Source: Triglochin maritima (taxonomy: Eukaryota > Streptophyta > Magnoliopsida > Alismatales > Juncaginaceae). From it: a DNA stretch of 64,000 nt. The notes below the pieces were generated by a model that was not told the origin of the DNA, searched no databases, and was given only the letters and a program-made list of their open reading frames with translations. The stretch lies in the NCBI GenBank assembly GCA_963682175.1, contig OY821786.1, forward strand, positions 27,240,501 to 27,304,500. Direction: 5' to 3'. Positions 3,195-59,406 of the stretch are shown here, one piece after another. Both the position numbers and the translations under genes were made by a program. Positions within the stretch are counted from its first letter, which is position 1; every line of letters begins with the position of its first letter.

Positions 3195-4326
3195 TGATAG
3201 GAATTTTATTTATACCGCAAGTGCACGGCGTCAATGAAGACGTGGCAAGTACGGGTCGAACACAAGGAGGGAGAGATTTCGTTGTTAGTGTTATTTCGAT
3301 TGTGGGAAAGAAAGGAGAGAAGAATTAATTTGGGTTTTTGGGGTTTTTGATTTAATTATCTAAAGCAAGAAACAAGAACAATTAAAGCTAAAAACAAGAA
3401 TAAAGATGGAGAATTCCGTCGGGTGGAGGTCTAGACTTAGGTTTAGATTGGAGAATGGAGAAACTTGAAATAAATCATGTTAGTTATGAAGCATTACAAG
3501 ATAAATGATTTAACATAAACTCAAGTAATCAAAATATACTAATCACGAACTTAAAACAATAACATGCATTCATCTTCTCTACCCCTAATTCCATCACCTC
3601 CACCCTTTGGAAAGAGTTAGAAACTCATGGAGGGAGGAAGAAGAAGGGATCCTAGAGACATTAAGAAAAGAAAATTAAAACAAAACAAAATAAAACAGAA
3701 TTTTATTACTAATGATCCAAGACCAAAGGTTCAAAGATGTGTTACATTCGTCCTACAGGGCTATTTATAGCCGATACAGGGGATACCAATACATAAAAGG
3801 ATAGTACACGCGTCGACCCGACACTGGACGAAAATTGGGCACACAGATCACCTCTGGTGCGGCGAAATCGCCGCACAATGCATGGGAGGTGCGGCTAATT
3901 CGCCGCCCAGGTTGGTGGGATCGGGTCCGGATTTCTGCGGTGCGTTTATGGCATGATTTGTTTCCATTCTTTTGAACTCCGGATTAATTCCTTCCATTGT
4001 TGGAGATTTATATTTGATTTTTCTTTTGACTTTCTCCACACAATAACTTGGTCCTTTTATTTTGCAATTAAGTCCTTGACCTTTTTGTAATTAGCTCCTT
4101 GAATGCTTTTATGCTTGGATGCATTTCTATTTGAAACCCGATAAACTTGAACTCGGTCTTTATGATAGAAATGAATCTTTTGCACGCGTTTATGCTCGGA
4201 ATGTGGGTAATTTGCATCCAGGTCCCTGTATTCTGTAAATACGACTAAACACATACCTTAGTAGCATTTATTGATATAAAAGTAATCTAAATGAAAGACA
4301 TATGATGCAATGTATGCAATGCATCA
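3195..4326 (-). repeat. 3' LTR of element A
   Basis: Nearly identical to 9293-10423. On the sense strand it begins TGATGCATTGCATAC and ends CTATCA. It contains a TATA box (CTATAAATAG, complement of 3761-3770), a palindrome pair at 3857-3906, and spaced GGACC/GGACTT-type repeats around 4050-4120. The purine tract lies at 4327-4341. Confidence 0.93.
3857..3906 (-). promoter_or_regulatory. Palindrome pair in the U3 of A (32-bp spacing)
   Basis: First site GTGCGGCGAAATCGCCGCAC (9-base arms, centre 3866.5). The second has GCGGC and GCCGC arms (centre 3898.5). Centre distance is 32 bp. The same pair is at 9955-10004 in the 5' LTR, and a related pair with the same 32-bp spacing is in the leader at 9084-9133. 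It lies upstream of the TATA box in the sense direction. Function unknown; the constant spacing of about three helical turns suggests a DNA-binding site. Confidence 0.7.
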
Positions 4327-5450
4327 AATACCCCCACACCTAGATTTTGCTAGTCCCTAGCAAAGCAGAATATAAGAAAATGAAAGCAGGGAAATCCTAA
4401 CTCACTTTCGTAGGAATCACGGTTGCACTTAGCATGTGCAACAAGCCTTTAAACCTCCAGGTTGCCTTAGAGGACGAGTTTTGTCTCGTGAGGGTTTTCA
4501 GTTGACACACCCACAAAGTCTTAATTCAACATTCCATTAATAGCTCTTAATATTTCTGCCTTAACCTTATACATCTCACTTAAAGTTCTTGCATGCTCAT
4601 TATACAGTTCTAACTTATAAAAAGTTTGACTTGGTCTTTATTCCTCCAACATTCACACCACTAACCCCTCTACACATGTTATCACATAAATTATTTTGCA
4701 CGCCTCCTCTGGTGGTGAAGTATCATTTGGATCAACCATGGCATGGATCATTCCTTTAGCTTTGGGCCTTGAGTATCTTAAAGTATTTATTTATTTTTAT
4801 CCTTTTTCCGTGATTCAACACATTTGCTTTTCTTTTTGACACTTATACCCTTTTTGCATTCGTGTAGCGAGTTTGGTCGATAATCCCGAGCTGGCAGACT
4901 CAAGTTACCGGGTTTCAAGATACCCCTACGGACCAGTGACTCGAAGGCTTGGGCTTTTGTAATCATTTTGCAAAATGTGTTTTCCTCACTTTATTTTTAT
5001 TTTATTTTACTTTTATTTTCCTCAAGGCTTAATTGCTATTAGAAGTCCACACTTCCCGGTATATTTTCCTCAACCTCTGCTTTTTATCAACCACTTCAAA
5101 GATTTGATTCATCCAATTTAAGTGCATACATGTCTTACAAGGGTCATGGGTTATTTCTTTGGAACTTAGATTTATGTCATAATTTCTACAAGCAGAACTA
5201 TACAATACGGAACAAAAACTTAATGCAATTTGTACACGGGTTTTGGCAGTTCAATCTTAAGCTATGTCATAGAATATTGAATTTTTTTTTTAAACATAAA
5301 GCAGAACAGAAAATCAAATAGATAGATATGTACATATATAAACCCCCCTCCACACCTAAATCATGCATTGTCCTCAATGTATGCACAGATACAATAAATG
5401 CACTTATTACCTGCGTCGGCTTGCGGTAGAGGGGTTGAGTTTGCTCAAAG
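4327..5450 (-). other. 3' non-coding region of element A
   Basis: No credible ORF. In sense order it follows the protease stop and includes the segment 'gaggacaatgcatgatttaggtgtgg' (also seen in E near 24070), a T-rich stretch, the conserved three-hairpin block and the purine tract AGGTGTGGGGGTATT next to the LTR. The same order occurs in E, H and I, so this is a conserved non-coding module, not random spacer. No trace of RT or integrase was seen. Confidence 0.8.
4395..4475 (-). other. Conserved three-hairpin block upstream of the purine tract (A copy)
   Basis: On the sense strand the order is CCTC-TA-AGG-CAA-CCT-G-GAGG, then GTTGCAC-ATGCTAA-GTGCAAC, then TCCTA-N11-TAGGA. The first stem uses different pairs from element E (CCTCCTTG-GCAA-CAAGGAGG) yet still folds, which looks like compensatory change. 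Matching blocks are at 25224-25302, 33254-33342, 50139-50220 and 56461-56545. Confidence 0.65.
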
Positions 5451-6374
5451 TCAACCATAATCAGAACTGGATTGAATGACACCATGTTGGTGCATGTATC
5501 CAGTTGAATTGTTCCCCATGTTGACTTGAGGAAAAGATTCCACTCTTCTCACTTGAATTGGTTCGCTTGTTTGCTCGAGTGATGGTGGTTGGGTAAATGA
5601 ATTACTCCCTTTTTTCTTACTTCCTTTTTGCTTATGTGATGATTTATTTGATTCAGAATTCTGATAAATACGTGCTCTCATCACAACATCACTTGGGTTG
5701 CATATTATTTCTGGCTCATTATCAATGTGGAAGATATTAAATTCTGCTTTTAAGTTCCCGAAAGATAATTGCATGAGCCCATTTCGACAGTTTATTAATG
5801 CTTCCGAAGTGGCTAAAAAGGGTCTTCCTAAAATTACAGGGATTTGTCGATTTGGATTTACAACAGGTTCAGTATCAAGTACGACAAAATCCACTGGATA
5901 AATGAAGTCACCAACCTTAATCAAAACGTCCTCTACTATACCTCTCGGTTTCTTAACAGAACAATCAGCGAATTGGAGGGTTGTCCTAGAGGGTTTCAAC
6001 GGACCAAGGTTGAGTTGCTCGTAGACAGAAAATGGGAGTAAGTTAACGCTTGCACCAAGGTCTAGAAGGGCTTTATTGATAAACGTATCTCCTATTGAAC
6101 ATGAAATTGTGGGACACCCCGGGTCCTTATATTTTATAGGAGATGTGTTGGAAAGAATTGAGCATATGTTTGCAGTTAAGAATGCCTTCTTTGGTACATT
6201 CGTTTTTCTCTTCTTAGTGCACAAATCTTTTAAGAATTTAGCATAAGCAGGTATTTGTTGAATCATGTCTAAGAGTGGAATGTTTACCTTAACTTGCTTA
6301 AATACTTCCAAGATTTTCTCTATTTGTGAACTAGAGTTCTTTTTGAGTCTATTGGGAAATGGGGCTTTAGGCAC
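5451..6374 (-). CDS. Retropepsin-type aspartic protease of element A
   Basis: A 307-codon ORF. Residues 1-60 are the conserved linker ([34 protein letters not shown]). The protease active-site segment ALLDLGASVNLLP is near residue 99, with DLG in place of DTG/DSG as usual in this lineage. The flap/C-terminal motif [19 protein letters not shown] is near 180-200. It would cleave the gag polyprotein inside the particle. A tail of about 80 residues, rich in Lys/Ser/Gln, follows and resembles nothing I know. The first Met lies inside the end of the gag ORF, and the frame is -1 relative to gag with a 55-bp overlap. In E and J gag and protease share one frame, so this is either a small indel or a frameshift signal. 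Confidence 0.85.
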   Translation of the reverse strand: MPKAPFPNRLKKNSSSQIEKILEVFKQVKVNIPLLDMIQQIPAYAKFLKDLCTKKRKTNVPKKAFLTANICSILSNTSPIKYKDPGCPTISCSIGDTFINKALLDLGASVNLLPFSVYEQLNLGPLKPSRTTLQFADCSVKKPRGIVEDVLIKVGDFIYPVDFVVLDTEPVVNPNRQIPVILGRPFLATSEALINCRNGLMQLSFGNLKAEFNIFHIDNEPEIICNPSDVVMRARIYQNSESNKSSHKQKGSKKKGSNSFTQPPSLEQTSEPIQVRRVESFPQVNMGNNSTGYMHQHGVIQSSSDYG

Positions 6375-7960: not shown

Positions 7961-9269
7961 GTCCCGAATCCAAATCTGAGTGCACCGGGTTGAATCAATT
8001 TTTTGAATTCAAATTCGAAATTTAAATTCCAAATTTAATTTCAAGAATTAATTACTCTTTTTTCGTTTTTTTTTTTGAATTTTAATTTTTTTTTTAAAAG
8101 AAACAAACAATAGAAAGGGAAGGATGAGAAGTGAAAGAAGACTCAGACGAGAAGGGAAACTTAACTCTAAAGGATAAAAATTAGGGTTGGTCAGAAATTT
8201 CCTGAACAAGCACGGTCAAAACAATCCTAGACCTAGTGTCACTTAGATCTAGACGACTCCTAACTGGTTGAGTCGAATTAGTTTGCTTGATTCACCTCCC
8301 TCACCAATCAAACCAAGTTGGCCAGTTAGTGTATAGCTAGTGGGGGCGCTTCCGACAGAGTCGGTGCCTAATTACACAACCACGTCGCTTGGAAGACTTT
8401 CGTCGACACAAAAACACTTTCTAGACACCAAATTGAATTCAATTAGCTTCAGGTCATAGCAAGTCAAACCAATCTCCTCCTTAATTGAGTCCGAGTCCTT
8501 AGGGGCCAATGTCTAATTGATTTTAAATTTTAGGCTTAGGCGACACTTCAGGATTGTGGTTTGTGGGCTACGGGAGGGTGATGAAATCCCCACCGTATCT
8601 TTTCCTACGGAGTTGCCCTTAAGATAGTTTAACTTAAATCTAGCAAAGATAGTCAAACAATGGTCCTTTTAATGGGGGCAATTGCAAGGTTGTATGCAAC
8701 TAAATTATATGCTCTAATGCAATCGATAAAAACCTCGATACGTACCTTGCCTCCAGCAATCTTCAACAAGTATTAATTTGCAAGAATTTAGCAAGAATAA
8801 TGCAAGCAAAACATTATATGATGCATGCACTAAGGTCTTTCTAATTTTGCCAATTTTAGGTCAGAGTTGAATTATTGCCAATTATGGAATTGTAACCCTA
8901 ACACGTGCAATTCTACGAAAGGAAACTTTTCAACTATTCTGATTTTACGAGAAAGGCAAGAAAAGTTACCTCCGCAATGCTCAGTCGGGTTCGCCACCCG
9001 CTCTCGGAGATTCCAGTAGCTCAATGCGACCACCCAGAGATGCCGACGACGCCCTCAAAATTTGAAGACCGGAAGACCAACCTGTGCGGCGTTTTCGCCG
9101 CAAATGCTTCTTATGGTGCGGCGGATTCGCCGCTCTTAAAGCTCAGAATGCGCTCGTATTTCGCCACGCGCTCTGTTGTCTCCTGAAACACAAATCCAAA
9201 TACTTAGATAGCGCATAAGATAAACAGGAAAAATCGAAAACACAAAAACAACAAAAATCTGCGTCGCTT
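7961..9269 (-). other. Long leader of element A
   Basis: No gene. From the PBS the sense strand holds the palindrome pair (9084-9133), a splice-donor-like GCAAG|GTACG whose intron would start at 8745 (about 525 nt after the PBS), the block GTGGGGATTTCATCACCC (about 8577-8600) and A/T homopolymer runs near 8060-8100 just before gag. The whole order is shared with G and, more distantly, with E, F and J. Confidence 0.75.
9084..9133 (-). promoter_or_regulatory. Palindrome pair in the leader of A (32-bp spacing)
   Basis: TGCGGCG-TTTT-CGCCGCA (centre 9093.5) and GCGGCG-GATT-CGCCGC (centre 9125.5), 32 bp apart. These are the same motif family and spacing as in the LTR of the same element, although LTR and leader are otherwise unrelated. 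Confidence 0.65.
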
Positions 9270-9286: not shown

Positions 9287-9292
9287 AAAACT

Positions 9293-10423
9293 TGATGGGA
9301 ATTTTATTTATACCGCAAGTGCACGGCGTCAATGAAGACGTGGCAAGTACGGGTCGAACACAAGGAGGGAGAGATTTCGTTGTTAGTGTTATTTCGATTG
9401 TGGGAAAGAAAGGAGAGAAGAATTAATTTGGGTTTTTGGGGTTTTTGATTTAATTATCTAAAGCAAGAAACAAGAACAATTAAAGCTAAAAACAAGAATA
9501 AAGATGGAGAATTCCGTCGGGTGGAGGTCTAGACTTAGGTTTAGATTGGAGAATGGAGAAACTTGAAATAAATCATGTTAGTTATGAAGCATTACAAGAT
9601 AAATGATTTAACATAAACTCAAGTAATCAAAATATACTAATCACGAACTTAAAACAATAACATGCATTCATCTTCTCTACCCCTAATTCCATCACCTCCA
9701 CCCTTTGGAAAGAGTTAGAAACTCATGGAGGGAGGAAGAAGAAGGGATCCTAGAGACATTAAGAAAAGAAAATTAAAACAAAACAAAATAAAACAGAATT
9801 TTATTACTAATGATCCAAGACCAAAGGTTCAAAGATGTGTTACATTCGTCCTACAGGGCTATTTATAGCCGATACAGGGGATACCAATACATAAAAGGAT
9901 AGTACACGCGTCGACCCGACACTGGACGAAAATTGGGCACACAGATCACCTCTGGTGCGGCGAAATCGCCGCACAATGCATGGGAGGTGCGGCTAATTCG
10001 CCGCCCAGGTTGGTGGGATCGGGTCCGGATTTCTGCGGTGCGTTTATGGCATGATTTGTTTCCATTCTTTAGAACTCCGGATTAATTCCTTCCATTGTTG
10101 GAGATTTATATTTGATTTTTCTTTTGACTTTCTCCACACAATAACTTGGTCCTTTTATTTTGCAATTAAGTCCTTGACCTTTTTGTAATTAGCTCCTTGA
10201 ATGCTTTTAGCTTGGATGCATTTCTATTTGAAACCCGATAAACTTGAACTCGGTCTTTATGATAGAAATGAATCTTTTGCACGCGTTTATGCTCGGAATG
10301 TGGGTAATTTGCATCCAGGTCCCTGTATTCTGTAAATACGACTAAACACATACCTTAGTAGCATTTATTGATATAAAAGTAATCTAAATGAAAGACATAT
10401 GATGCAATGTATGCAATGCATCA
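9293..10423 (-). repeat. 5' LTR of element A
   Basis: Differs from the 3' LTR at a few positions: TGATGGG versus TGATAGG at the inner end, TTTAGAAC versus TTTTGAAC, and a missing T in the ATGCTTTTATGC tract. TATA box complement at 9859-9868, palindrome pair at 9955-10004. Confidence 0.93.
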
Positions 10424-10428: not shown

Positions 10429-10915
10429 CCTTACTAACTAATGCATGATCGAAACATGCATGAATGAGAGATTTGGGTGCACGTACCTCATGCCAGCAAT
10501 CAACAACAAAAATGTAAAGCAAAGAAAAGACAAATGCGTGCAAGGTTTACAAATGATGTATGACCTAGATGGCAACAAGTCTAATCTTTTGCTTTGACTT
10601 TTATAGTCCAAGTTGATTAAAGGGGATTGATTTTTAATCTAGGAGCAAACTAAAAGTCACAGCATGCAAGATGGTGCTCCCAGATAACTATAATGTAATA
10701 AGCAACCACCAGAATAAAATTGGGAGAAATTGAAGCTCACCAGACCGCCAATTGGCGGTTTCAGACCGCTGATTGGTGGTCCCTTTTGCGCAATTGTTCC
10801 CCCAGTTTCTCCAGTAGCCGCCCCTTGCTTCTTACAACCCCTGAAACAAACCAAAACTAAAAAGAAAAATTAAAATCACTCGAATCGTCCAAACCAAAGT
10901 CTGGACAGAGCACCT
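10429..10915 (-). other. Leader of element B, PBS-proximal half
   Basis: No gene. On the sense strand it contains ACCGCCAATTGGCGGT-type palindromes at 10744-10759 and 10765-10780 (centres 21 bp apart) and a splice-donor-like TGAG|GTACGT with the intron start at 10486, 430 nt after the PBS. It aligns with E at about 19613-20105. Confidence 0.8.
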
Positions 10916-10938: not shown

Positions 10939-12488
10939 TGATTGATACGTTTTAATTAACCGCAAGTGCACGACCGCGTTGAAGCGGTGGCAAATACGGG
11001 TCGATCCACAGGGAGGTGTGTCGACTTTAGTTTGTTCGAAGGCGAGTGGGAAAGAAATGAGAGAAAGGAGTTATGATCTACACTACACTACAATGCGAAA
11101 GGAAATGGAAACTAAGCAATAAAACTAAACCCCAAAGAGGGTAGAGAAAGAATGTGAATACAAATATATGTGTTTGTGTTCAATTATGCTCATCACAACA
11201 TGTAGTGTATGAAAATCATAAAACTAAATCCAACTTTACGTCCACATGAAATAAGATAAGATCATATCATTAAAACATACAAGACAATAATTAGAATGAA
11301 GCTAGATGAACTCAAGTATAAAGACCAAACCCCACTATGCCTCTACATGAAATAAGATTTACCCAATCATTAAAACATACAAGAGATTAATAAAGGTAAG
11401 GGCAACAAGAGCACATACACTACAAGTCATGTTTCCTTCATCAATTCCATCCATATCCTCACCTTATCATTCCCCATAAAATAGGTCTACTAATCTAAGC
11501 ATAAGCTAAGCTTCATTCAAGAGCATTAACATATCAAAGAGAAGAGTGAAATCCCATTAGATGGTTATGGAAATCATATAAGGCTCAAGGGATTAAGATA
11601 AGACACACCTAATACACCACATGATCATATCACATATTTCTCCACCCCCCAAATGGGGATGAAACTACTGACTAATCATTACACTAACTACATCAACAAA
11701 ATGAAACATTGTACTGAAATGAAATTAAACTAAGCAAGCAAGAAATATTAAAGAAGCTAAAAGGAAAGGAAAGTAAAACTAAAGAAACATGCAAGAATTA
11801 AAAGACAAGATTAAAAGAAACTAAGAATAATTATTTTATTAAAATGACTCACATTGAAGGTAGCACTCTTCTACACCTTGAGTTTTGCTTCAAGCTTACT
11901 CCAAGTAGAGAGAATGCCACCAAGCAATGGGTGATTACAAAAAGAGGAGTTCTATTTATAGCCATAGAAAAAGGTAATCCGGGACAATCTCCCGGTATGG
12001 GACTAAACCAATACCAGAAATAGACTAAATACTCACTAATACACGTCCCACATGAATCTTAGCGGATCCGGACCAAAATTGACCACCAATTAGCGGTCTT
12101 GGACCTCCAATTGGCAGTCTACAGTGTTCGGATCTCTCTGGATTTTCTTGTGGGCTTTTCTGGTAGGCTTTGTTTGTCTTTGATGCATCTACTTCGCTTT
12201 TTGGAGCTCCGACTCGAATAGAATTGCCAAAATACTCCCCATGATAGTGTGAAGTATTCTTGTTTGCTCATTGGTCCTTCGATCTTACATTCAGGTCCTT
12301 CGATCTTGCATCTTAGTCCTCGAGTCTCTCAACTCAGTCATTTTCCCTGCTATTAGGTCCATTTATAGTCTCTCCTTCTCAAACCTACTTATTCCTGAAA
12401 ACTAAACATTAAACTCCTTACATGGCATTGTTTGGGTGAAAGATAGTGGATATAAGACACAAAGATATGCATGAAATGATGTCAATCA
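10939..12488 (-). repeat. 5' LTR of element B
   Basis: 1550 bp, TG...CA ends, clearly related to the LTRs of E. On the sense strand it starts TGATTGACATCATTTCATGC and has five GGACC-like sites stepping by 21 bp (complements at 12273, 12294, 12315, 12336, 12356), palindromes at 12082-12097 and 12103-12118 (21 bp apart), and a TATA complement at 11952-11961. It interrupts the gag of C1. A 5-bp duplication (ATATT) cannot be confirmed because the left end of B is deleted. Confidence 0.88.
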
Positions 12489-18249: not shown

Positions 18250-18404
18250 TAAGAGCAAAACAGGAAACTCCACACCATTATGAGGAGTATTTTGTCAATT
18301 CGATTCGGGTAGGAGCTCCACTAAACACGTTAGATGCATCCAAGACCAAGAAACACACTAAGGAAAGCCCACCAGAAGATCCAGACAGATCTGAAGTTTA
18401 TAGG

Positions 18405-18440
18405 CCGCCAATTGGCGGTCTGGAACCGCCAATTGGCGGT
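18405..18440 (+). promoter_or_regulatory. Palindrome pair in the U3 of E (21-bp spacing)
   Basis: CCGCCAATTGGCGG (centre 18411.5) and ACCGCCAATTGGCGGT (centre 18432.5), both perfect palindromes, 21 bp apart. Repeated in the 3' LTR at 25748-25783. A related pair with the same spacing is in the leader at 19750-19786. Confidence 0.75.
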
Positions 18441-18569: not shown

Positions 18570-19595
18570 GAACTCTTCACCTTCCATTGTAATTACCCAT
18601 TGCTTGGTGGCATTCTCTCTACTAAGGAGTGAGCCTTGAAGCAAAAACTCAAGGTGGAGAAGAATGCTACCTTCAATGTGAGTCATTTGTTAATAAAATA
18701 ATTCTTCTAGTTTCTTTTAATCTTGTCTTTTAATTTGTGCATGTTTGTTTAGTCTTTCATTTCCTTTTATGTTTCTTTAATGCTTCTTGCCTTCTTAGTT
18801 AACTTTCATTTCAGTATTATGCTTTCTTTTGCTAATATAGTTAGTGTAATGAGTAGTGAGTAGTTCCATCCCCATTTGGGGGTGGAGAAATATGTGATAT
18901 AATTATGTAGTGTATTAAGTGTGTGTTATTTTTATCCCTTGAGCTTTATATGATTTCCATAACCATCTAATGGGTCTCCACTCTTATCTTTGATATGCTA
19001 ATGCTCTTGAATGAAGCTTAGCTTATGCTTTGATTAGTTGACCTATTTTATGGGGAATGATAAGGTTAGGATATGGATGAAGTTAATATTGGAAACACAA
19101 GTTGTAGTGTATGAGCTCTTGTTGCCTTTACCTTAGCTAATGTCTTGTATGTTTTAATGATGTAGTGAAATCTTAATTCATGTGGAGGCATAGTAGGGTA
19201 TAGTCTTTATACTTGAGTTCATGTAGCTTCATTCCAATTATTGTCTTGTATGTTTTAATGATGTAGTCTTATCTTAATTCATGTAGAGGCAAAGTTGGAT
19301 GTAGTTTTATGATTTCATGCACTACATATTGTGACGAGCTTAATGAACACACACACACTTCTTTATGTTCACATTATTTCTCTACCCCCTTTGGGGTTTA
19401 GTTTTTCTTGCTTCTTTTCCATTTCCATTTGCATCTTAGTGTAGTTTAGTGTAACCAACCTTTCTTCCCTTTCTTTACCTCTCGCCTTCGCACAAACCAA
19501 GTGTCGACACACCTCCCAGTGGACGACCCGTATTTGCCACCGCTTCAACGCGGCCGTGCACTTGCGGTTAAATATAAAACGATCAATCAAGTTTT

Positions 19596-19612
19596 TGGCG
19601 CCGTTGCCGGGG
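19596..19612 (+). other. tRNA-Asp primer-binding site of E
   Basis: TGGCGCCGTTGCCGGGG, a perfect complement of the plant tRNA-Asp 3' end, six bases after the LTR. Confidence 0.92.
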
Positions 19613-20726
19613 AGGTGCTCTGTCCAGACCTTGGTTTGGACGATTCGAGGGGTTTTTAATTTTTTGTTTTCAGTTTTTCTTAGTTTCATGGAACACTTTG
19701 ATCAAGGGGAGGCTACTGGGAAAATCTGAGGACCAGAAGACCAAAAGGGACCGCCAATCAGCGGTTGTAGACCGCCAACTGGCGGCCTGGTGAGGTCATC
19801 TTGCCTTGAAATTTTTTCTGGTTGTTGTTTTCTTCTATTTGGTTATCTGGGAGCTCTATTTTGCATGCTTTGACTTCTGGTTTGCTCCCAGATCATTAAT
19901 AACTCCCCCATTAATCAACTTGGACCATAAAACTCAAAGCAAAAGATTAGACTTCTTGCCATCTAGGTCATGCACCATTGGTAGACCTTGCATGCATTTG
20001 TCTTTTCTTTGCTTTACATTTTGTCGTTGATTGCTGGCGTGAGGTACGTGCACCCACATCCCTCATTCATGCATGCTTCTTTCATGCATTAGTTAGTAAG
20101 GTGCATCAGGACAAGAGTGAGAGAGCGTTGATTGGAGCGATTGATTGCTAGATCTAGGATCAAATCGCTACTAAGGAGGGGCTGTCCCATAAAAGATAAG
20201 GTGGGGGATTTCATCACCCTTTCCTTGGCCCCAAAAACCACTCTTAATAAAGCCTTAACTAAAAGCAAGTAGACATTGGCCCTAAGGAATTCGGACGCAC
20301 TAGGAGAGTAATCTAGTCGAGACCGTCATGACCTGATCGGCGTTGCCTACCTTGTCGATAGTAGGAGGTACTGGATCTCCAGATCTGGTATCACTTGCTG
20401 GGCATTGTGGTCCTCGTTGTAGGGAGGTGAGGCGTGTCGAGGCTAGTGGCCTCGAAGTTAGGCGTCGTCTAGCTTAAAGACCCATTGCCTTACTTTGTTT
20501 GAGCCGTGCTTGCTAGTTAGGCTTCTTCCTGATCCCACTACCCACGCTAGCTCTAGGGATTCTTCTCTCCTCACCTGAGTCATCTCCTCATCTATTCTCT
20601 ACGTTTAGTCTCCTCCTCTAGTACACCTTCTGTTGTGTGTTTGTTAGAGTCGAGTCGAGCATTTTTATGCGAGGTTGGGCTCGTTCTGGTGAAAGCGCTC
20701 GACTCGAGAGAGTGCTTATTTCTGAG
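19613..20726 (+). other. Long leader of element E
   Basis: No gene. It holds the leader palindrome pair (19750-19786), a splice-donor-like TGAG|GTACGT with intron start at 20044 (432 nt after the PBS), the block GATAAGGTGGGGGATTTCATC (about 20195-20215) and a pyrimidine-rich stretch near 20580-20625 with possible acceptors (TTTAG near 20608) before gag. The same order holds in B, F and J. Confidence 0.75.
19750..19786 (+). promoter_or_regulatory. Palindrome pair in the leader of E (21-bp spacing)
   Basis: ACCGCCAATCAGCGGT (centre 19757.5) and ACCGCCAACTGGCGGC (centre 19778.5), 21 bp apart. It is the same motif as in the LTR, though the flanks are unrelated. Confidence 0.7.
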
Positions 20727-36557: not shown

Positions 36558-38079
36558 TGCTGGCTTTTTTACCTCAATCCATGTTTTGATGATTTCCCCA
36601 ACCTAATCTTAATAACAATTCAAAGTAGAGTAGCATACATTATGCATAACATATATATAGCCTTGTGCTAACTTCTACAGGTGATCAAGACTCGAGGAAG
36701 AAAGGAATTCAAGTCGAGACATGTAATCAAGCTTTTGAAGACATGTAATTTTACTTTCAATTGAGTCTTAGGAACTTTGTGTACTTGAGCATACAAGAGT
36801 TAAAAACTACTCACACACACACTAGGTTCCTTATAGAAGTCACACACAAAATCTCAGATCATTCGGACTTCAATAGGTCACCCAAACATAGACCGGAAAA
36901 CACTTAAAACCAAACCTGAACTGCCTATGCAAATTTTGTCGACCGAACCACCATTTGACTGAATGATCATTTAACCAATAGTATTTTAAACAGCCCAACC
37001 GGTCAACCATGACCATTTCGATCGACCATCTACACGTGTCTTTTGACCGTTAGACTTGTCGTATTATACCAACAGTCGTATTCAAATTATTATCCCTACC
37101 CCAAGAATACAAGTAAGCACTGGTCGACCGTGGACCTAATTTCGGTCGACTGACCTTAAACGTTTTGACAAACCCAGTGCTCCTGTTATTTTTGGTCGAC
37201 CAACCCAACCATTTTGATCGACTGAACCTAAACATTTTTGACAACCCCATAGAGCATGTTAGTTTTTTCGGTCGACCGAACCAACCATTTAGTTTGACCG
37301 TTAACTTAAGAGAACTTAAGTTATAGCCTGTTTTCGTTTGACCGTTCCCTGCTCGGTCGACCATTGAATTTATGGACTTTCCTGGACTTCATTCCGGACG
37401 ACCTCTGGTCGACCGTTAAACCCTTTTCGGTCGACCGAATTTACCCAAAACTGTAACCTGCACTTTTCTATTTTTGTGTATCTTACACAAACAACTTCTA
37501 ATTATATGACAACGGCTATACCTCTCTTAGAGCTTATAAATAGATGTTAACAAGACACAATTTGATAGGTCTTCCACTCCAAATTGGCATACACATCTAA
37601 GAGAAACTCCCAAGCTTTCAATTCCCCAATCCTACTCTCCAAGCCAAACGTTCAACACTTTAGATCAATTCCCAATCATACTCTAAGTGTGCTCATGTTA
37701 GAGAGTGATTGTTCAACTCAATACTTGTTTGTCAACAAGCAAGGACTTCGGTGAAAGCCCGAAGTGTTCCCTCTCAGATTGTGAGAGGAAGGAATCAAGC
37801 TAGCGAGGATTGTTCACGGAGCTTGCTGTGTAAAGGCTTAATCTCGGCCCGAACGAGATTGATAGTGAAGACATAGGCAGAGCTCGCAGAGTCGAGTGGA
37901 GCTTGCAAGAGAGGAAGTAGGCGGGATGCCGAACCTCTATAAAAATCCCTGGGTCACTTTGTGTGGTTTGTGTTTCTCTACTTGTTTGTTTTTATTATTT
38001 TCGCTGCATCTTTGATTGTTTAAGCAAGTAGAGATTAACTTAAAAAGTGATTAGAATTAGGGTCATACACGATCCTACA
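36558..38079 (+). repeat. 3' LTR of Sirevirus-type C2
   Basis: 1522 bp from TGCTGGCTTTTTTACC to CACGATCCTACA, following the purine tract and TTGTCATCATCAAAAAGG, as expected for Sireviruses. TATA box CTTATAAATAG near 37543. Between about 36935 and 37440 it carries five to seven pairs of GGTCGACC-like palindromes 19-22 bp apart (for example centres 37125.5/37147.5, 37197.5/37219.5, 37410.5/37432.5). Confidence 0.82.
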
Positions 38080-44540: not shown

Positions 44541-45738
44541 TGATGCATTGCATACATTGCATCATATGTCTTTTATTTAGATTAATTTTATATCAATAAA
44601 TGATACTAAGGTATGTGTTTAGTCTTATTTACAGAATACAGGGACCTAAATGCAAATTACCCATATCCCGAGCATAAACGCGTGCAATAGACTCATTTCT
44701 GACATGAAGACCAAATCAAGATTATCGGAGTTCAAATTGAAGTTCATCCAAGCATAAAAGCATTCAAAGACCTAATTACAAAAAGGCCAAGGACCTAAGA
44801 ACAAAAGTAGCCAGTGACTTAATTGCAAAAAGCCGAGGACCCGACTGCAAATTACAAGTACCAAAATATTATTTTGGAGAAGTTCTAAAGAAAAATCAAT
44901 TTGGATCTCCAAATTTATGAAGAATTAATTTGAAGCTCAAAAGAAAGGAAAGAAATCAATCCGGACGCGCAAAGGACAACTAAATCATACCATAAACACA
45001 TAGGAAAAATCCGGATCCAATCAAAGCTAAAATTGCGGCGATTCCGCCGCACATCACATACAACTTGCGGCGACAACGCCACACCCCTTTCGATCCGTGC
45101 CCCCTGATTTTGTCCAGTCGTGTCATGACGCGTGTACTTTCCTATTTCATACTTGGGTCCCTTGTATCGACTATAAATAGCCCCGAAACGATGTTGTAGA
45201 GGAGAATCTTGTTTCTTCATTCTTTAGCAATAAAATTATGTTGGTTTATTTCGTGTTTTTCGTTTTCTTTCGTAGTTTCTCTAGGACCCCTTCTCCTTCC
45301 CTCCATCCATGAGTTTTTAACTCTCTCCAAAGGGTGGGGGTGACGGATTTAGGGTGACGAGAAGAAGAATGATGTTATTATTTTAATTTCGTGTTAGTAT
45401 ATTTTGATTACTTGAGTTTATGTTGAGTCATTTATCATGTAATGCTTTATAACTAATGTGATTTATTATAAGTTTCAGATTTCTCTAAACAAAACCCGAT
45501 ATCTAAACCCCCACCCGCTGGACTCTCATCCATATTTGCTTTATTCTTAATTTGTTTTTGTTGTTCTTGCTTTAGAAATTAAAAATCCAAAAATCTCAAA
45601 CCAACATTATTTCTCTCTCTTTCTTTCCTTAATCGAAAATCACAAAAATAACAATATCTCTCCCTCCTTGTGTTCGACCCGTACTTGCCACGTCTTCATT
45701 GACGTCGTGCACTTGCGGTATAAATAAAATTCTCATCA
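44541..45738 (+). repeat. 5' LTR of A-family element G
   Basis: 1198 bp, TGATGCATTGCATAC...ATTCTCATCA. GGACC-like sites at 44768, 44791, 44815 and 44837 (22-24-bp steps), palindromes at 45034-45083, TATA box CTATAAATAG at 45171-45180. The right half of G is missing, so no duplication can be read. Confidence 0.88.
45034..45083 (+). promoter_or_regulatory. Palindrome pair in the U3 of G (32-bp spacing)
   Basis: TGCGGCG-ATTC-CGCCGCA (centre 45042.5) and TGCGGCG-ACAA-CGCC (centre 45074.5), 32 bp apart. The partner pair in the leader is at 45901-45948, also 32 bp apart. Confidence 0.65.
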
Positions 45739-45761: not shown

Positions 45762-47186
45762 AGGCGACGAAGATTTTGTTTATTTTTGGTGATTTCGATT
45801 CTATTATGTTTATCGTGTGCGCGATCTAACTATTTGGGTTTGCGTTTCAGGAGACAACGGAGTGCGCGGTGAAATCCGGGCACAGTCGGAGCAAGAAGGG
45901 CGGCGAAATCGCCGCACCTAAAGAACAATTTGCGGTGGATCCGCCGCACGTCTGAAGCATCTGGGCTTCAGTTTTTTCTGGGGACGTCTCCATCTCTGGG
46001 TGGACACGTAGAGAAACTGGAAATTTTCGAGAGCGGGCGGCGAACCCGACTGAGCGTGCGTAGGTAACCTTTGTTGCCTTTTTCCTCGTAATTTCTATTT
46101 TCGGGAAATTTCCTTTTTGTAGAACTGCACGTGTTAAGCTCAAATTCCATAATTGGCAATAATTCAACTCTGACCTCAAAATTGGCAAAAAAATTAGAAG
46201 GACTTAGTGCATGCATCATATAGTGTTTTGTTTGCATTATTCTTGCTAAATTCTTGCAAATTATTTTTTGTTGAAGAGTGTTGGAGGAAAGGTACGTGCG
46301 CGGTTTTTATCGATTGCATTTAAGCATATATCTTAGTTTGCATACAACCTTGCTATTGTCCCCCACTAAAGACCAATGTTTGACTATCTTTGCTAGATTT
46401 AAGTTAAAGTTTGCATACAACATTGCTATTGTCCCCCACTAAAGACCAATGTTTGACTATCTTTGCTAGATTTAAGTTAAACTATCTTAAGGGCAACTCC
46501 GTAGGAAAAGATACAGTGGGGATTTCATCACCCTTCCGTGGCCCACAAATCACAATCCAAAAGTGTCACCCAAGCCTTAAAATTAAAATCAATTAGACAT
46601 TGGCCCCTAAGGACTCGGACTCAATTAAGGAGAAGATTGGTTTGACTTGCTATGACTTGAAGCTGATCGAATGAATTTGGTGTCTAGAAAGTGTTTTTGT
46701 GTTGACGTAAGTCTTCCAAGCGAAGTGGTTGTCTAATTGGCACCGACTCTGTCGGAAGCGCCACCACTAGCTATACACTGCCTGGCCAATTTGGTTTGAT
46801 TAGTGAGGGAGGTGAATCAAGCAAACCAATTCGACTCAACCAGTTAGGAGTCGTCTAGATTTAAGCTAATTAGGTCTAGGATTGTTTGAACCGTGCTTGT
46901 TTAGGAAACTTCTGACCAACACTCTCATCTATCTTTTAGAGTTAAGTTCCTTTCTCATCTGAGTCTTCTTTCTCTTCTCATCTCAATTCTCTAGATTAGG
47001 ATTCCTTTTCTCATCTCCCCCCCCCTTCTATTGTTTGTTTCCATTTTTGAAAAGAAAAAAAATTATAAAAAAAATTTGATTCAAACTGGTGCACTCAGAT
47101 TTGGGTTCGGGACTTGAGCAATCGACTCTCACGAGTTCATCTAGATTCCAGTCTATCCACCTGTTGCACCACCTCACCCGGATCCA
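45762..47186 (+). other. Leader of element G
   Basis: No gene. Palindromes CGGCGA-AA-TCGCCG (45901-45914) and TGCGGTGGATCCGCCGCA (45931-45948), donor-like GAAAG|GTACGTG with intron start at 46292 (531 nt after the PBS), a 73-bp tandem duplication and GTGGGGATTTCATCACCC near 46517. Confidence 0.75.
46335..46480 (+). repeat. 73-bp tandem duplication in the G leader
   Basis: AGTTTGCATACAACC... to ...TTTAAGTTAA is present twice in tandem, starting at 46335 and 46408, with about one difference. The corresponding part of A (near 8640-8720) has it once. Confidence 0.85.
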
Positions 47187-50638: not shown

Positions 50639-51840
50639 TGATGAGAATTAAATTTATACCGCAAGTGCACGGCGTCAATGAAGACGTGGCAAATACGGGT
50701 CGAACACAAGGAGGGAGAGATCTTGTTATTTGTGTGATTTTCGATTAAGGGAAAGAAGGAGAGAAGAATAAATTTGGTTTTGAGTTTTTTGATTTTAATT
50801 ATCTAAAGCAAGAAACATGAACAAATAAAAATAAAACAAGAACAAAGATGGTGAATTCCGTTGGGTGGAGGTTTAGATATAGGGTTTAGATTAGAGAATT
50901 CAGAAACTTATAATAAATCATATTAGTTATAAAGCATTACATGATAAATGATTTAACATAAACTCAAGTAATCAAAATATACTAACACGAAATTAAAATA
51001 ATAACTTTTATTCTTCTTCTCTTCACCCTAAATCCGTCACCCCCACCTTTTGTAGAGATTTAGAAACTCATGGATTGAAAGGAGGAGAAGGGGTCCTAGA
51101 GAAACTACAAAAGAAACTAAAAACTAGAAATAAAGGACAAAATTTTATTACTAAACTAAAGACTAAAAATAAAAAACAACAACCAAAGACCTCTATAACA
51201 TCGTTCTCGGGGCTATTTATAGTTGCTACAAGGGACCTAAGTATAAAATAAGAAAGTACACGTGTCCAGACACGACTGGACAAAATTTGAGCACACGGAT
51301 AGCAAGGTAGGCGGCGGAATCGCCGCATGGTGTATGTGTTGTGCGGCGGAAACGCCGCACAATTGAGTCGGATTAAATCCGGATTTTGGCTGAATGTTTA
51401 TGGTATGATTTGATCCTCCTTTGCGCGTCTGGATCGATTCTTTCCTTTCTTTTGAGCTCCGGATTTATTCCTTCATATATTTGGAGATCCAAATTGATTT
51501 TTCTTTAAAACTTCTCCAAGATATTTAATTTGCAGTCAGGTCCTCGGCTGTTTGCAATTACGTCCCCGACTACTTTTGTGCTTAAGTCCTTGGCCTTTTT
51601 GTAATTAGGTCCTTGAATGCTTTTATGCTTGGATGAACTTCCATTTGACTCCCGATAATCTTGACTTTTTCTTTATGATAGAAATGAGTCTTTTTGCACG
51701 CGTTTATTCTCGGGATATGGGTAATTTGCATTCAGGTCCCTGTATTCTGTAAATCAGACTAAACACATACCTTAGTAGCATTTATTGATATAAAATTAAT
51801 CTAAATGAAAGACATATGATGCAATGTATGCAATGTATCA
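50639..51840 (-). mobile_element. Solo LTR of the A family inside H
   Basis: 1202 bp, TGATGAGAATTAAA...CAATGTATCA, flanked by perfect GCGAT duplications (50634-50638, 51841-51845). Palindromes GCGGCG-GAAT-CGCCGC (centre 51318.5) and GTGCGGCGGAAACGCCGCAC (centre 51350.5) are 32 bp apart. GGTCC-like sites at 51539, 51561, 51585 and 51608. Confidence 0.92.
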
Positions 51841-54240: not shown

Positions 54241-55955
54241 TGATTGATCGTTTTATATTAACCGCAAGTGCACGGACGCGTTGAAGCGGTGGCAAATACG
54301 GGTCGTCCACTGGGAGGTGTGTCGACTATTGGTTTGTGCGAAGGCGAGAGGTAAAGAAAGGGAAGAAAGATGTATTACACTACACTGCACTAATCTAAAC
54401 TAGTAAACAAGCAAGCTGAAATGAAATAACTAAACAACTAAGCTAAACAACTAATGAAGAAGATAAAAAGACAGGAATGGAAACCCCTAAGGGGTGGAGT
54501 GTTTATGTGTGTGCGCATGAATTAAGTGTGGTGTCGAATGCATACAATAAACTCAAGTTAGTTAGTGTTTGTTAATGCATAAGAGGTACCTAATGGCATA
54601 ACCTATCATTTACAACACTAAACTAATGTGATTAATATGAGCAATGCAAGGTTGTTATTAAGACACTTAGACAAGCATGGAATGTACCTAAGCTATGGCA
54701 GAAACCATCAAGTAAGGTTCTTAATAATTCAAACAAGCATACTAATATCAACACAAAACATTCATATTAAGCATTCAAACCATCTACATAACATGTACAC
54801 ACATCTACTCCACCCCCAAAGGGGATGGACTACTCACACATATTTAAACTAACTATTAAACACACATCTAACAAAATGAAGCATAATACTGAAATGAAAC
54901 TACACTAATCAAGCAAGAAATATTAAAGAAGCATAAAACAAAACAAGCACCACATTAAAGGAAATTAACTAAGCAAGAATTAACAAGATAATGTTAACAT
55001 CTATTATTAACTCACTCAAATTACAAGCAGCCCTTCCTCCACCAGAGTTTTGCTTCAATGTTTCACTCTTAGTAGGGAAGAAGGCCACGAAAGAGAGAGA
55101 TGGATACAATGGAAGGTGAAGAGTTCTATTTATAAGCATGGAAAAGCTAATCCGGGACAATCCCCCGATGTGGGACTAAACCAATACCAAAATAGCCTAA
55201 ACACACATTAATACAAGTCCAGGAGAAAGCTTAGCGGATCTGGGCTGATCCAGACCGCCAATTGGCGGCCTATACACTTCAGATCCGATTGGTTTTGGTT
55301 GTGGGCTTTGCTTGGAGTGTTTCTTGGTCTTGGATACATCTACTTTGTTTAGTGGAGCTCCGACCCGAATCGAATTGACAAAATACTCCCCATGATGGAG
55401 TGGAGTTTCCTGTTTTGCTCTTAGGTCCTTCTGTCTTACGTTCAGGTTCTTCTCCCTTGCATCTTGGTCCCCAGGTCTCACAATTAAGTAATTTTTCCTG
55501 CTTTTGGGTCCTTTCATGGCTCTTCTCTTCAAACCTCTTTATTTCTGAAATTCAAACATAAAACTCGTCATGTAGCATTGCTTAGGTGTAGGCCTGGCAA
55601 TCGTGTCGGGTCGTGTATTTTCGTGTCGTGTTTTTTTATACGCACTAGACAAATTATCCCAACCCGAACACGACACGGAATGAGTTCGTGTCTAGTTTTT
55701 AAAAACGAATACGACCCGTATAATTCCGTGTACGTTTCGTATACACACGAAAGCACCCTAAATATAACCATAAATGTCTTCATTAAAATATTTTCGGGCA
55801 CCAATATTTTCGTGTCGTGTTCCAAAAAAAAAAGGGACTAGGAAACTTTTAAACAAACGGACAATGTAAACTCTTCCGATGTGGGACTAAATGGTTTCCT
55901 ACGCTCACATATGCCAAGGATAGTTATAGTGTTGTTTCATCTTTATAGGTAAACA

Positions 55956-57093: not shown

Positions 57094-58352
57094 TGATTGA
57101 CATCATTTCATGCTTATATTTGTATCTTATATCCATTATCTTTCACCTAAACAATGCTATGTCACGAGTTTTATGTTTAGTTTTCAGGAATAAATAGGTT
57201 TGAAGAGATGAAGCATAAAAGGACCCAAAAGCTGTGAAAAATGACTGAATTGTGAGATCTGGGGACCAAGAACACCAACCAGGAAAGCCTCCAAGAAAGC
57301 CCAGACGAATCCGGACCCTGTAGACCACCAATTGGCGGTCTGGAACCGCTAATTGGCGGTCCAGGTGGATCCGAATCCGTTTAGCTTTTTCTGGTGTGTG
57401 TATTAGAGCGTTCTTATTCTATTTATGGTATTTGTTTAGTCCCACATCGGGGGATTGTCCCGGTTTAGCCTTTTCCATGGCTATAAATAGAACTCTTCAC
57501 CTTCCATTGTAATCACTCCATGCTTGTGGCCATTCTCCCTAATTGAAGTGGAAGCCTTGAAGCAAGAAACTCAATAGGGAGATGCTACTGGTCTTGTGAG
57601 TCTTCAATTAATAAAATTTTCTTTGTTTTGTGCTTCTTTTATTGTTGATGCATGTTTTAGTTTAATTGTCTTTTATTAAATCTAGCTTAGTTAATATGCC
57701 TTCTTATTTTAGTGTAATAGTTAGGGTAATGTGTAGTGAGTAAAACCACTCCCCTTTTGGGGGGTGGAGATGATTATCATATATGCAATTAAGGAAGGAA
57801 GGATGTTTATGTTGAAATGTGTTGATTAATATGAATGCATACTTGCTTGTTAGAATAGAACACTTCACTAGATGGGTTTTGCCATGATAAGTAGACACCT
57901 CCCATACTTGCTTAGTTTCTTAAATAACCAGCTTGTGTTTATGAATGTTAATCAAAATAGGTTAGTGATTTAATTGATAGGTTTTGCCATGATAAGTAGA
58001 CACCTCCCATACATGCAAACACTACCTACACTTGTGCCTATAGGAAGATATTTTTGCCTCCTTATTGTGTATGTGTAGTCACTCCACCCCCTAAGGGGTC
58101 TCTCTCTCTTACTGATTTCTCCATAGTGTCAAGTTTCTCTAGCTTAGTTGAAGTATTCGTTTATTTTGTTTCCTTCGCATTTGCTTCTTCGTGTTAGCAT
58201 AGTTTAGGTTAGCATAAACAACTTTCTTCCATCTTTCTTTGCCACTTGATTTCTGATAAGCAAGAGCAAGCTCACCTCCCTGAGGATGACCCGTACTTGC
58301 CACCGCTTCATCGCGGCCGTGCACTTGTGGTAGAAATATAAAACGTTCAACA
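57094..58352 (+). repeat. 5' LTR of autonomous element J
   Basis: 1259 bp, TGATTGACATCATTTCATGC...ACGTTCAACA. GGACC/TGACT sites at 57221, 57242 and 57263 (21-bp steps, two units fewer than E), palindromes ACCACCAATTGGCGGT and ACCGCTAATTGGCGGT (57324-57360, 21 bp apart), USE-like GTCCCACATCG (57439-57449), TATA at 57482. The right copy and the duplication are outside the window; the left flank is GAACA. Confidence 0.9.
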
Positions 58353-58358
58353 AGTTTT

Positions 58359-58375
58359 TGGCGCCGTTGCCGGGG
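58359..58375 (+). other. tRNA-Asp primer-binding site of J
   Basis: TGGCGCCGTTGCCGGGG, perfect, six bases after the LTR. Confidence 0.92.
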
Positions 58376-59406
58376 AGGTGCCAGTCCAGACTCTTGTTTG
58401 GACGATTCGAGTGGATTTAATTTTTGTCTTGTAGTTTTCTTTGTTTCAGGAGACTCACATTGAAAAGGGGAAGCATCTGGTGAAGTTTGGAGGCGGTTTG
58501 AGAGAAGACAACCGCCAATCAGCGGTCTACAACCGCCAACTGGCGGTCTGGTTGTTTCATTTCACCTCGAAATTTCTTTGGAGTATTTCGTTATATGATA
58601 TAGTGGTCTGGGACGTAATTTGGCATGTTTTGACTTATAGTTTGTTCCCAGATCAATAATCAAACTTCCCTTAAGCAACTTGGACCCTAAAACTCAAAGC
58701 AAAAGATTAGGCATTCTTTTTGTTTAGGCCATGCATCATGTATGTGACTTTGGCACTTAGATTGTCTTTTATCTTAGCTTTATTTTCTGTTGCTGAGAGC
58801 TGGCGTGAGGTACTCACCTTCTACTCTCATTCATGCATTTCGTATGAACATGCATTAGTTAGTAGGAAGTGCATTGCAACAAGTGTGAGTTGAGCGTTGT
58901 TTGGAATGTTGATTGCTAGATTTAGGACTCCAAAACGCTACTAAGGAGGGGTTGTCCCGTAAAAGATAAGGTGGGGGATTTCATCACTCTTTCCTTCGCC
59001 CCAAAAACCACACTAATCAAGAGCCTAATTTTAAAATCAAGTAGACATTGGCCCTAAGGATCTTGGACGCATTAGGAGAGTGATCTGGTCCCGACCGTCA
59101 TGACCTGATCGGCGTTGCCCACTTTGTCGATAGTAGGAGAGACGAGATCCCCGGATCTTGGCTCACTTGCTTGGCTTTGTGGTCCTCGTTGTAGGGAGGT
59201 GAGGCGTGTTGAGGCCGTGTGACCTCGCAGTTAGGTGTCGTCTAGCTGTAAGGACCTATAGCGACCTTAGGATTGTTTGAGCCTTGTTTGCTTGTGTGCT
59301 TCTACCTGTACCCATCCGCCGTAGCTTAAGGACTTCTTCCCTTCTCTCCTGAGTCATTCTTTCTCTCCTGTGTTCCCTCGTCTTCTCTTCTACGTACATT
59401 CTTCAT
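58376..59406 (+). other. Leader of element J
   Basis: No gene. Palindromes ACCGCCAATCAGCGGT and ACCGCCAACTGGCGGT (58511-58547, 21 bp apart), donor-like TGAG|GTACTC with intron start at 58810 (435 nt after the PBS), GATAAGGTGGGGGATTTCATC near 58965, then pyrimidine-rich sequence before gag. Confidence 0.78.

What the first reader, a model, noticed from the sequence alone, without database searches (positions are those of the whole stretch)
3857..58547. Family-specific palindromes in phased pairs, duplicated between LTR and leader
Several Athila-type elements carry two palindromes at a fixed distance in U3 and a second such pair in the leader about 140-200 nt after the PBS. In E, J and B the motif is ACCGCCAATTGGCGGT-like and centre spacing is 21 bp in all six pairs (18405/18425, 19750/19771, 57324/57345, 58511/58532, 12082/12103, 10744/10765). 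In A, G and two solo LTRs the motif is GTGCGGCGA-TCGCCGCAC-like and spacing is 32 bp in every pair (3857/3891, 9085/9118, 45034/45066, 45901/45931, 51311/51341, 35981/36013). Spacing stays at two or three helical turns while spacers and flanks differ, and LTR and leader motifs change together between families. Inference: a dimeric DNA-binding factor recognising family-specific sites. Alternative: 5' leader and 3' U3 RNA palindromes pair (dimerisation, circularisation).
Basis: partly seen in the sequence, partly recalled or inferred. Interest (0 to 1): 0.9.

Follow-up and report, generated by a model that had tools for sequence, protein, structure and literature searches.

The report
Helically phased palindrome pairs in Athila retrotransposons
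Two families of a plant jumping gene carry pairs of short mirror-symmetric DNA sites, nearly always two or three turns of the double helix apart, in their switch region, their leader and, in one family, before a late gene; they look like docking sites for paired DNA-binding proteins.

Summary
Every site is a 6+4+6 palindrome: GCGGCG-N4-CGCCGC spaced 32 bp (F1) or ACCGCC-N4-GGCGGT spaced 21 bp (F2). In 50 Athila-type 5' ends, 89 of 100 U3 or leader slots hold two sites; 88 have the family spacing, one is 31. Genome-wide, F1 pairs with gaps of 2-32 number 6379; all 50 listed have gap 16. Arms are more conserved than spacers and near flanks.

New here: F2 copies that keep the region after integrase have a third pair there, also 21 bp (J and 12 of 12 fetched). 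Copia-type palindromes in this genome (CGGTCGACCG, identical to a published Vitis Sirevirus box) are spaced 18-25 bp in 94 of 100 listed pairs, 31-33 in 5, 40 in 1.

RNA pairing finds little support: no overall wobble bias, no leader-U3 covariation. Best reading: paired sites for dimeric DNA-binding proteins, a Ty3/gypsy variant of the Sirevirus repeated-motif boxes. The factor is unknown; LBD/AS2 is a lead for F1.

The parts
3859..3906 (-). F1 pair, U3 of the 3' LTR of element A (3859-3874, 3891-3906; spacing 32)
9086..9133 (-). F1 pair in the leader of element A (9086-9101, 9118-9133; spacing 32)
9957..10004 (-). F1 pair, U3 of the 5' LTR of element A (spacing 32)
35983..36030 (-). F1 pair, both sites degraded, in solo LTR S35 (spacing 32)
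   Evidence: read off; below the threshold
45035..45082 (+). F1 pair, U3 of element G (spacing 32)
45900..45947 (+). F1 pair, leader of element G (spacing 32)
51311..51358 (-). F1 pair in solo LTR S50 (spacing 32)
10744..10780 (-). F2 pair, leader of element B (spacing 21)
12082..12118 (-). F2 pair, U3 of element B (spacing 21)
18404..18440 (+). F2 pair, U3 of the 5' LTR of element E (spacing 21)
19750..19786 (+). F2 pair, leader of element E (spacing 21)
25747..25783 (+). F2 pair, U3 of the 3' LTR of element E (spacing 21)
55254..55269 (-). Single F2 palindrome in LTR H (one 21-bp unit missing): exception to pairing
57324..57360 (+). F2 pair, U3 of element J (spacing 21)
58511..58547 (+). F2 pair, leader of element J (spacing 21). 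J also has a third pair outside the window, at L075 1334/1355 (window-equivalent 65234/65255), after the integrase frame
19592..19613 (+). Primer-binding site of E, landmark for leader distances; others at 45741+, 58355+, 10915-, 9269- and a degenerate one at 39895+
719..1210 (.). Array of CGGTCGACCG-like palindromes (Sirevirus-type box), several in pairs 20-22 bp apart
28153..28708 (+). Second array of CGGTCGACCG-like palindromes, not alignable with the others, pairs 16-22 bp apart
36936..37438 (-). Third array of CGGTCGACCG-like palindromes (in a copy related to the region around 719-1210)

Best explanation
Each 16-bp palindrome is a site for a protein dimer, one subunit per arm. Two such sites lie on the same face of the helix (two turns in F2, three in F1), so that two dimers can touch and bind cooperatively. 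The double site is placed where transcription is controlled: about 90-120 bp upstream of the TATA box in U3, about 157 nt after the start of the primer-binding site in the leader, and, in F2 copies that keep that region, between integrase and the coding frames that follow it. It acts as an enhancer or upstream control box, and probably as an internal one for those frames. F1 and F2 use different factors, or different members of one factor family, so motif and spacing differ together at both places. Shown: sites, positions, spacing, conservation, little support for RNA pairing. Inferred: a protein binds, it is dimeric and host-encoded, binding is cooperative, and it drives transcription. For F1 the half-site GCGGCG equals the published consensus of the LBD/AS2 dimeric factors, a lead only; F2 has no named candidate.
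For: Pairwise identity (arms / spacer / flanking 80 columns): F2 leader .85/.46/.60-.64, F1 leader .94/.60/.75-.84; F1 U3 .90/.56/.68-.73, F2 U3 .90/.585/.67-.72. Spacing: 36 of 36 F1 leader pairs, 36 of 37 F1 U3 pairs, 8 of 8 F2 leader and 8 of 8 F2 U3 pairs exact (39 F1 and 11 F2 elements examined). All 50 listed of 6379 genome-wide F1 pairs have gap 16 with 2-32 allowed, reversed control 0. Of four distinct indel events inside the leader pair, two remove exactly one unit, 32 or 21 columns. CGGTCGACCG pairs, whose spacers vary in length, fall at 18-25 (94 of 100 listed), 31-33 (5) and 40 (1), none at 10-17, 26-30 or 34-39; 89 of 100 lie within 2 bp of a whole number of turns, a band that covers 13 of the 31 allowed spacings. 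CpGs in F1 leader arms are intact in 94%, other leader CpGs in 85%. The third F2 pair is at 21 bp in 12 of 12 fetched copies, arms .975 against .85-.87 in the flanks and .925 over the whole piece. LBD: dimer, GCGGCG, palindrome recognition (PMC10118128, passages).
Against: No binding, expression or footprint data exist here. Common descent explains part of the constancy inside one family. Some copies have one site only (H; U3 and leader of L042, the same element as in L015), so a pair is not always kept. Other parts of the F1 LTR are as conserved as the arms: 124 of 241 same-shape windows of U3 in four window LTRs. The 100 listed CGGTCGACCG pairs come from the first megabase of one contig, include near-copies, and only 6 lie outside the two-turn class; their commonest spacing, 22 (48 of 100), is a little over two turns, and a period of 11.0 fits as well as 10.5 (R .695 and .681).
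Confidence: 0.64

Rival explanations
1. RNA model: the palindromes act in the genomic RNA as stem-loops for dimerisation or packaging, or pair between the 5' leader and the 3' U3 to close the RNA into a circle.
For: Single strands fold well: 11 of 12 pair regions have z below -2.6. In F2 the odd base of leader site 1 (AGCGGT) matches the odd base of U3 site 2 (ACCGCT) in an antiparallel duplex; intermolecular pairs 93.6% against 85.6% inside the leader and 95.0% inside U3. In 4 of 18 F2 leader pairs (one of them degraded) site 1 has T opposite that A, which restores the pair, as it would restore DNA symmetry. In F2 U3 site 2 wobble cells exceed A-C cells, 14 to 2. The leader position fits retroviral dimerisation signals (recalled).
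Against: No overall wobble bias: G-U against A-C cells 11 to 12 in F1 and 21 to 39 in F2, counted in sequences, not events. Leader site 1 of F2 has C opposite A in 14 of 18 leader pairs. No within-element covariation of centres between leader and U3 in F1 (permutation P 0.76) and none of arms in F2 (P 0.18). It does not predict spacings of 21, 32, 18-25 and 31-33 or the same kind of box in copia-type LTRs.
Confidence: 0.12
2. Host-silencing model: the palindromes persist as a by-product of tandem slippage and are mainly hotspots for small RNAs and methylation, as described for maize Sirevirus palindromes; conservation reflects recent amplification.
For: Units are lost in exact 21- or 32-bp steps in some copies. 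Other papers report small-RNA excess on Sirevirus palindromes (PMC10760457, PMC5311732, passages).
Against: Recent amplification alone should not give conserved arms beside diverged spacers and flanks, nor preferred spacings with variable spacers. CpGs in F1 leader arms decay less than CpGs nearby. It may still be true as a consequence.
Confidence: 0.1
3. Element-encoded factor: the autonomous elements encode their own DNA-binding protein that recognises the family's sites (for anti-silencing or promoter control), as VANC proteins do for VANDAL elements (recalled).
For: Sites are family-specific, and one pair lies upstream of coding frames of unknown function after integrase.
Against: Neither frame scanned there (115 and 246 aa) has a Pfam match, so no DNA-binding domain is seen. 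Nine of the ten long F2 stretches show no match to this region (matches start at L075 2488-2493) and yet carry the sites. CGGTCGACCG is shared with the published Vitis Sirevirus consensus, which favours a host factor for that motif.
Confidence: 0.1

Closest known systems
Sirevirus repeated-motif (RM) boxes (Bousios et al. 2010, PMC2829016; abstract, outline, passages, sections 9 and 19 read)
   Same: Family-specific CpG-rich palindromes with dyad symmetry, in the LTR a short distance upstream of the TATA box, with further copies upstream of the envelope-type gene; the window's third motif CGGTCGACCG equals the Vitis consensus in its Table 3
   Different: Those are Ty1/copia elements with at least 8 boxes each, and the boxes were called absent from classic copia elements. 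The Athila-type version is Ty3/gypsy, has two boxes per place at one fixed spacing, has a set in the gag leader, and helical phasing is not reported in the parts read
LBD/AS2 (LOB-domain) binding sites (PMC10118128, PMC7178066, passages; the structure paper is not held)
   Same: Half-site GCGGCG; protein dimerises; dimer said to discriminate palindromic DNA by a calipers mechanism
   Different: Match is for F1 only and is a consensus match, not binding; F2 half-site ACCGCC does not match
Retroviral/Ty dimerisation or circularisation signals (recalled)
   Same: Palindromes between primer-binding site and gag, partner palindromes in 3' U3
   Different: Little sign of a pairing constraint; spacing follows helical turns

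Membership tests
Sirevirus RM boxes | Palindrome with dyad symmetry, CpG-rich, family-specific | tested here: met
Sirevirus RM boxes | Core CGG-CCG in that order | tested here: inconclusive
   F1 arms contain CGG...CCG; F2 has CCG...CGG, the reverse order
Sirevirus RM boxes | Cluster in the upper LTR upstream of a TATA box | tested here: met
   88 bp from the F1 pair of element A to CTATAAATAG; about 120 bp in F2 element E (read off the alignment)
Sirevirus RM boxes | Extra copies upstream of the envelope-type gene | tested here: inconclusive
   F2: a pair lies between integrase and the next coding frames in J and in 12 of 12 fetched copies; whether those frames are an envelope-type gene is not shown (no Pfam match). 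F1 not seen
Sirevirus RM boxes | At least eight copies per element | tested here: not met
   Athila-type elements have mostly 2 per U3, 2 per leader and (F2) 2 after integrase
Sirevirus RM boxes | Host element is a Ty1/copia Sirevirus | tested here: not met
   In J, RT-RNase H is followed by integrase, i.e. Ty3/gypsy order. For the CGGTCGACCG elements the lineage was not tested
Athila lineage of Ty3/gypsy | Retrotransposon gag, RT-RH then INT, extra coding frames between INT and 3' LTR | tested here: met
   gag on E, RT-RH and INT on J; E and J gag align
Athila lineage of Ty3/gypsy | RT phylogeny within Athila | not tested
LBD/AS2 target sites | Half-site GCGGCG | tested here: met
   F1 only; consensus from PMC10118128
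LBD/AS2 target sites | Bound by an LBD dimer | not testable with these tools
   needs DAP-seq or gel shift
RNA dimerisation / circularisation signal | Base pairing kept by wobble or compensatory change | tested here: not met
   exceptions told under the RNA rival

The most novel reading that the evidence does not exclude
Plant LTR retrotransposons of both superfamilies share one cis-regulatory grammar: two dimer-binding palindromes a whole number of helical turns apart, set as interchangeable cassettes at U3, leader and late-gene control points. Families swap the whole cassette, motif and spacing together, between factors. Athila-type F1 and F2 are one such swap at a matching leader position (first site 156-160 nt from the start of the primer-binding site in 46 of the 48 sampled elements that have one, both families).
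Probability: 0.3. Interest if true: 0.8.

Novelty: new variant of a known kind. Interest (0 to 1): 0.63.

Why it matters
LTR control regions of plant retrotransposons are usually described as arrays of motifs without a rule for spacing (recalled). A helical-phase rule, shared by an Athila-type and a copia-type element in one genome, makes the binding factor findable: it predicts dimers that bind cooperatively at two or three turns and gives ready probes. The sites are very numerous (75,197 F2-like palindromes within 2 mismatches; 100,280 CGGTCGACCG pairs; 6379 F1 pairs), so, if a host factor binds them, a large share of its genomic sites would lie in retrotransposons (inference).

Tried and rejected
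RNA kissing loops: set aside as the main reading after the covariation and wobble tests. NF-Y (CCAAT), E2F and GCC-box readings of F2 were considered from memory; no motif library was available, so none is claimed. Viral and bacterial-genome collections: gag alignment, a 35-base pattern and the primer-binding site gave no plant relatives in viral contigs. The primer-binding-site pattern gave 10 hits in genome contigs, of which L003 and L008 look like plant contamination. In these two a scan for perfect 6-bp GC-rich arms found none in L003 and four in L008, two of them the same CTCTCC-ACTT-GGAGAG 232 bp apart upstream of the primer-binding site; no close pair. The plasmid collection had no match. 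Rfam (gathering threshold) and tRNA scans: nothing. Guessing the late-gene position in other elements missed it. A helper list scored one false U3 pair (L015) and one degraded leader pair (window 39893); both are in the pair-type cell counts of that call, and neither had both pairs, so neither entered. The F2 genome-wide spacing pattern did not complete, so the F2 spacing rests on fetched loci: 37 of 38 distinct neighbouring pairs at 21 and one at 47; F1 69 of 70 at 32 and one at 34, a weak extra site.
Full report
CHECK. The window (C18:27240501-27304500 of a 1.06-Gb genome in 167 contigs, unnamed) is a nest of Ty3/gypsy elements. Self-comparison and LTR ends give family F1 (LTR TGATGCAT...ATCA; A 9293-10424 and 3195-4326, G 44541-45738, solo 35354-36497 and 50639-51840) and family F2 (LTR TGATTGACATC...; E 18033-19589 and 25376-26932, B 10939-12490, J 57094-58354, H 54239-55590). 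Each is 6+4+6, GCGGCG-N4-CGCCGC in F1 and ACCGCC-N4-GGCGGT in F2. In the window 65 GC-rich palindromes of this shape exist against 19.4 in shuffles (maximum 31), and pairs at 20-22 or 30-34 bp average 0.02 in shuffles. The spacing is exactly 32 in F1 and 21 in F2. H has one palindrome, lacking exactly one 21-bp unit.

WIDER SAMPLE. The exact primer-binding site occurs 4474+4510 times in the genome. By LTR end 39 are F1 and 11 F2; no element has F1 palindromes in one place and F2 in the other. With a loose rule (at least 8 of 12 arm bases), both leader sites are seen in 36 of 39 F1 and 8 of 11 F2, and both U3 sites in 37 of 39 and 8 of 11. Spacing is 32 or 21 in all of these except one F1 U3 at 31 whose second site is degraded. 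Where a leader site exists (48 of 50), the first starts 156-160 nt after the start of the primer-binding-site pattern in 46, both families; the outliers are 166 and 187. Over all window and G000 DNA held, distinct neighbouring sites with at least 10 of 12 arm bases are 32 apart in 69 of 70 F1 cases and 21 apart in 37 of 38 F2 cases. A genome-wide search for two perfect F1 palindromes with any gap of 2-32 gives 6379 places; the 50 listed all have gap 16, with many different spacers; the reversed control gives 0.

CONSERVATION. Fifty sampled elements plus 18 from long stretches and the window make 68; 14 near-duplicates were dropped, leaving 32 F1 and 22 F2. Leader pairwise identity: F1 arms .944, centres .732, spacer .597, flanks .842 and .747; F2 arms .851, centres .829, spacer .463, flanks .601 and .636. 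U3: F1 arms .896, centres .519, spacer .559, flanks .728 and .677; F2 arms .899, centres 1.0, spacer .585, flanks .670 and .722. Inside the leader pair four distinct indel events are seen: a deletion of exactly 32 columns and one large deletion in F1, a deletion of exactly 21 columns and a 2-column insertion in F2. CpGs in the F1 arms are intact in 94.3% against 84.8% for other leader CpGs (8 and 19 columns; F2 4 and 3 columns.900 and .830). The first comparison on four window LTRs was weaker: 124 of 241 same-shape gap-free windows of U3 were as conserved as the F1 arms, since other parts of the LTR are conserved too. The claim is therefore an island within a variable stretch, not the most conserved part of the LTR.

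RNA OR DNA. Folded alone, the pair regions are stable (11 of 12 with z below -2.6), as palindromes would be. If pairing in RNA were kept, G-U should exceed A-C. Counts are 11 and 12 cells in F1 and 21 and 39 in F2; these count sequences, not events, and one F2 site, the second of U3, goes the other way (14 to 2). The first F2 leader site has C opposite A in 14 of 18 leader pairs; in the other 4 (one of them degraded) a T restores the pair, which either pairing or DNA symmetry could explain. In F1 the variable centres of leader and U3 do not match within elements better than after shuffling elements (permutation P 0.76 antiparallel, 0.85 direct; 27 elements), and F2 arms do not either (P 0.18; 15 elements). 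One further point favours RNA: in F2 the odd base of leader site 1 matches the odd base of U3 site 2 in an antiparallel duplex. Spacers of leader and U3 resemble each other beyond letter-shuffled controls, in F1 more in direct orientation (.47 against .29; reverse .36 against .25) and in F2 in both (.39 against .29.41 against .22), so the two places may share an origin by copying. On checking this report the leader mismatch count was corrected from 16 to 14 of 18; the RNA rival was raised from 0.10 to 0.12 and the best reading lowered from 0.66 to 0.64 for that reason.

HELICAL PHASE IN A THIRD MOTIF. Three arrays in the window (719-1210, 28153-28708, 36936-37438) hold CGGTCGACCG-like palindromes; the second shares no alignable sequence with the others beyond the motif. 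Of 35 successive distances, 14 are 19-22 bp; random placement gives 3.4 on average and at most 11 in 5000 trials, and when any 4-bp bin is allowed at most 12. Genome-wide, two perfect motifs with gap 0-30 give 100,280 places. The 100 listed have spacings 18-25 (94; 22 alone 48), 31-33 (5) and 40 (1), none at 10-17, 26-30 or 34-39, although spacers differ in length and sequence. This is the strongest evidence that what is measured is position on the helix. Limits: the listed places are the first on one contig, include near-copies, only 6 lie outside the two-turn class, and a period of 11.0 fits as well as 10.5.

THIRD PLACE IN F2. Element J runs past the window. Beyond it (L075) come integrase (PF00665), then a pair ACCGCTAATTAGCGGT-TTGGA-ACCGCCGTTCAGCGGT at 21 bp. 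An ATG lies 188 nt further on (L075 1558), in an open frame of 115 aa (1429-1773) that overlaps a 246-aa frame in another phase (1710-2447); neither has a Pfam match. The same region has 849 candidate places in the genome, of which 40 were scored and matched, J among them. Twelve were fetched, 10 of them from the more diverged group (91-92%); all 12 keep both sites at 21 bp, with arm identity .975 against .85-.87 in the flanks and .925 over the whole piece. Nine of the ten long F2 stretches show no match to this part.

MECHANISM. Best reading: paired dimer sites for DNA-binding proteins at these control points. Distance to TATA is 88 bp in F1 element A and about 120 bp in F2 element E (read off). 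F1 arms equal the LBD/AS2 consensus GCGGCG, and LBD dimers are said to discriminate palindromic DNA (PMC10118128, passages; PMC7178066, passages). The primary structure paper is not held. Steps shown and inferred are separated in the best explanation.

KNOWN OR NEW. Sirevirus RM boxes (PMC2829016) are the same kind: family-specific palindromes, upstream of TATA and of the envelope gene, one of them (Vitis) identical to the window's third motif. Its authors could not name one factor (section 19). Small-RNA excess on Sirevirus palindromes is reported in later papers (passages; the 2016 primary paper is not held). A search for Athila with palindromic gave 17 papers, 15 listed; two of them were opened and neither describes these pairs in the parts read. 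A second search gave 6 papers, none opened. So: not found in print by these searches; a wider claim is not made.

Noticed in passing
L075:1334-1370 (window-equivalent 65234-65270): Third F2 pair between integrase and the following coding frames, the place where Sireviruses carry extra boxes before the envelope gene; present in 12 of 12 other copies fetched.
   Followed up: yes
window 719-1210, 28153-28708, 36936-37438: Arrays of CGGTCGACCG palindromes, many in pairs 19-22 bp apart, in two unalignable contexts; motif equals the Vitis Sirevirus box.
   Followed up: yes
window 18868, 26211, 39226, 57749 and 19383, 26726, 58085: Other GC hairpins in F2-type LTRs downstream of the TATA box (CCCC-3 to 5 nt-GGGG), whose loop length varies between copies, unlike the fixed 4-nt centre of the paired palindromes.
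   Followed up: no
leaders in the window, e.g. 8950-9200 (A) and 58350-58870 (J): Leaders of A, G, B and J have TTTCAGG after a T-rich stretch before the pair (E has TTTCATGG), and A, G, B, E, J have AGGTA after it, like a 3' and a 5' splice site; the pair may lie on an exon.
   Followed up: no
window 3195-10424 and 18033-26932: Elements A and E have a gag-containing ORF but little room for pol; F2 copies share one match start (about L075 2488), so an internally deleted form has been amplified.
   Followed up: partly
window 23354-23550: 30-bp repeat in the gag-containing ORF of E, encoding a repeated LEPHSFDHVA-like peptide.
   Followed up: no
L003 and L008: Contigs of a Streptomyces and a Blastococcus assembly carry plant-like LTR retrotransposon sequence at 37% GC, probably contamination.
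   Followed up: partly
F1 leaders, about 34 bp upstream of the first site: A weak extra match to the F1 motif (8-10 of 12) in many F1 leaders, possibly a decayed third site.
   Followed up: no
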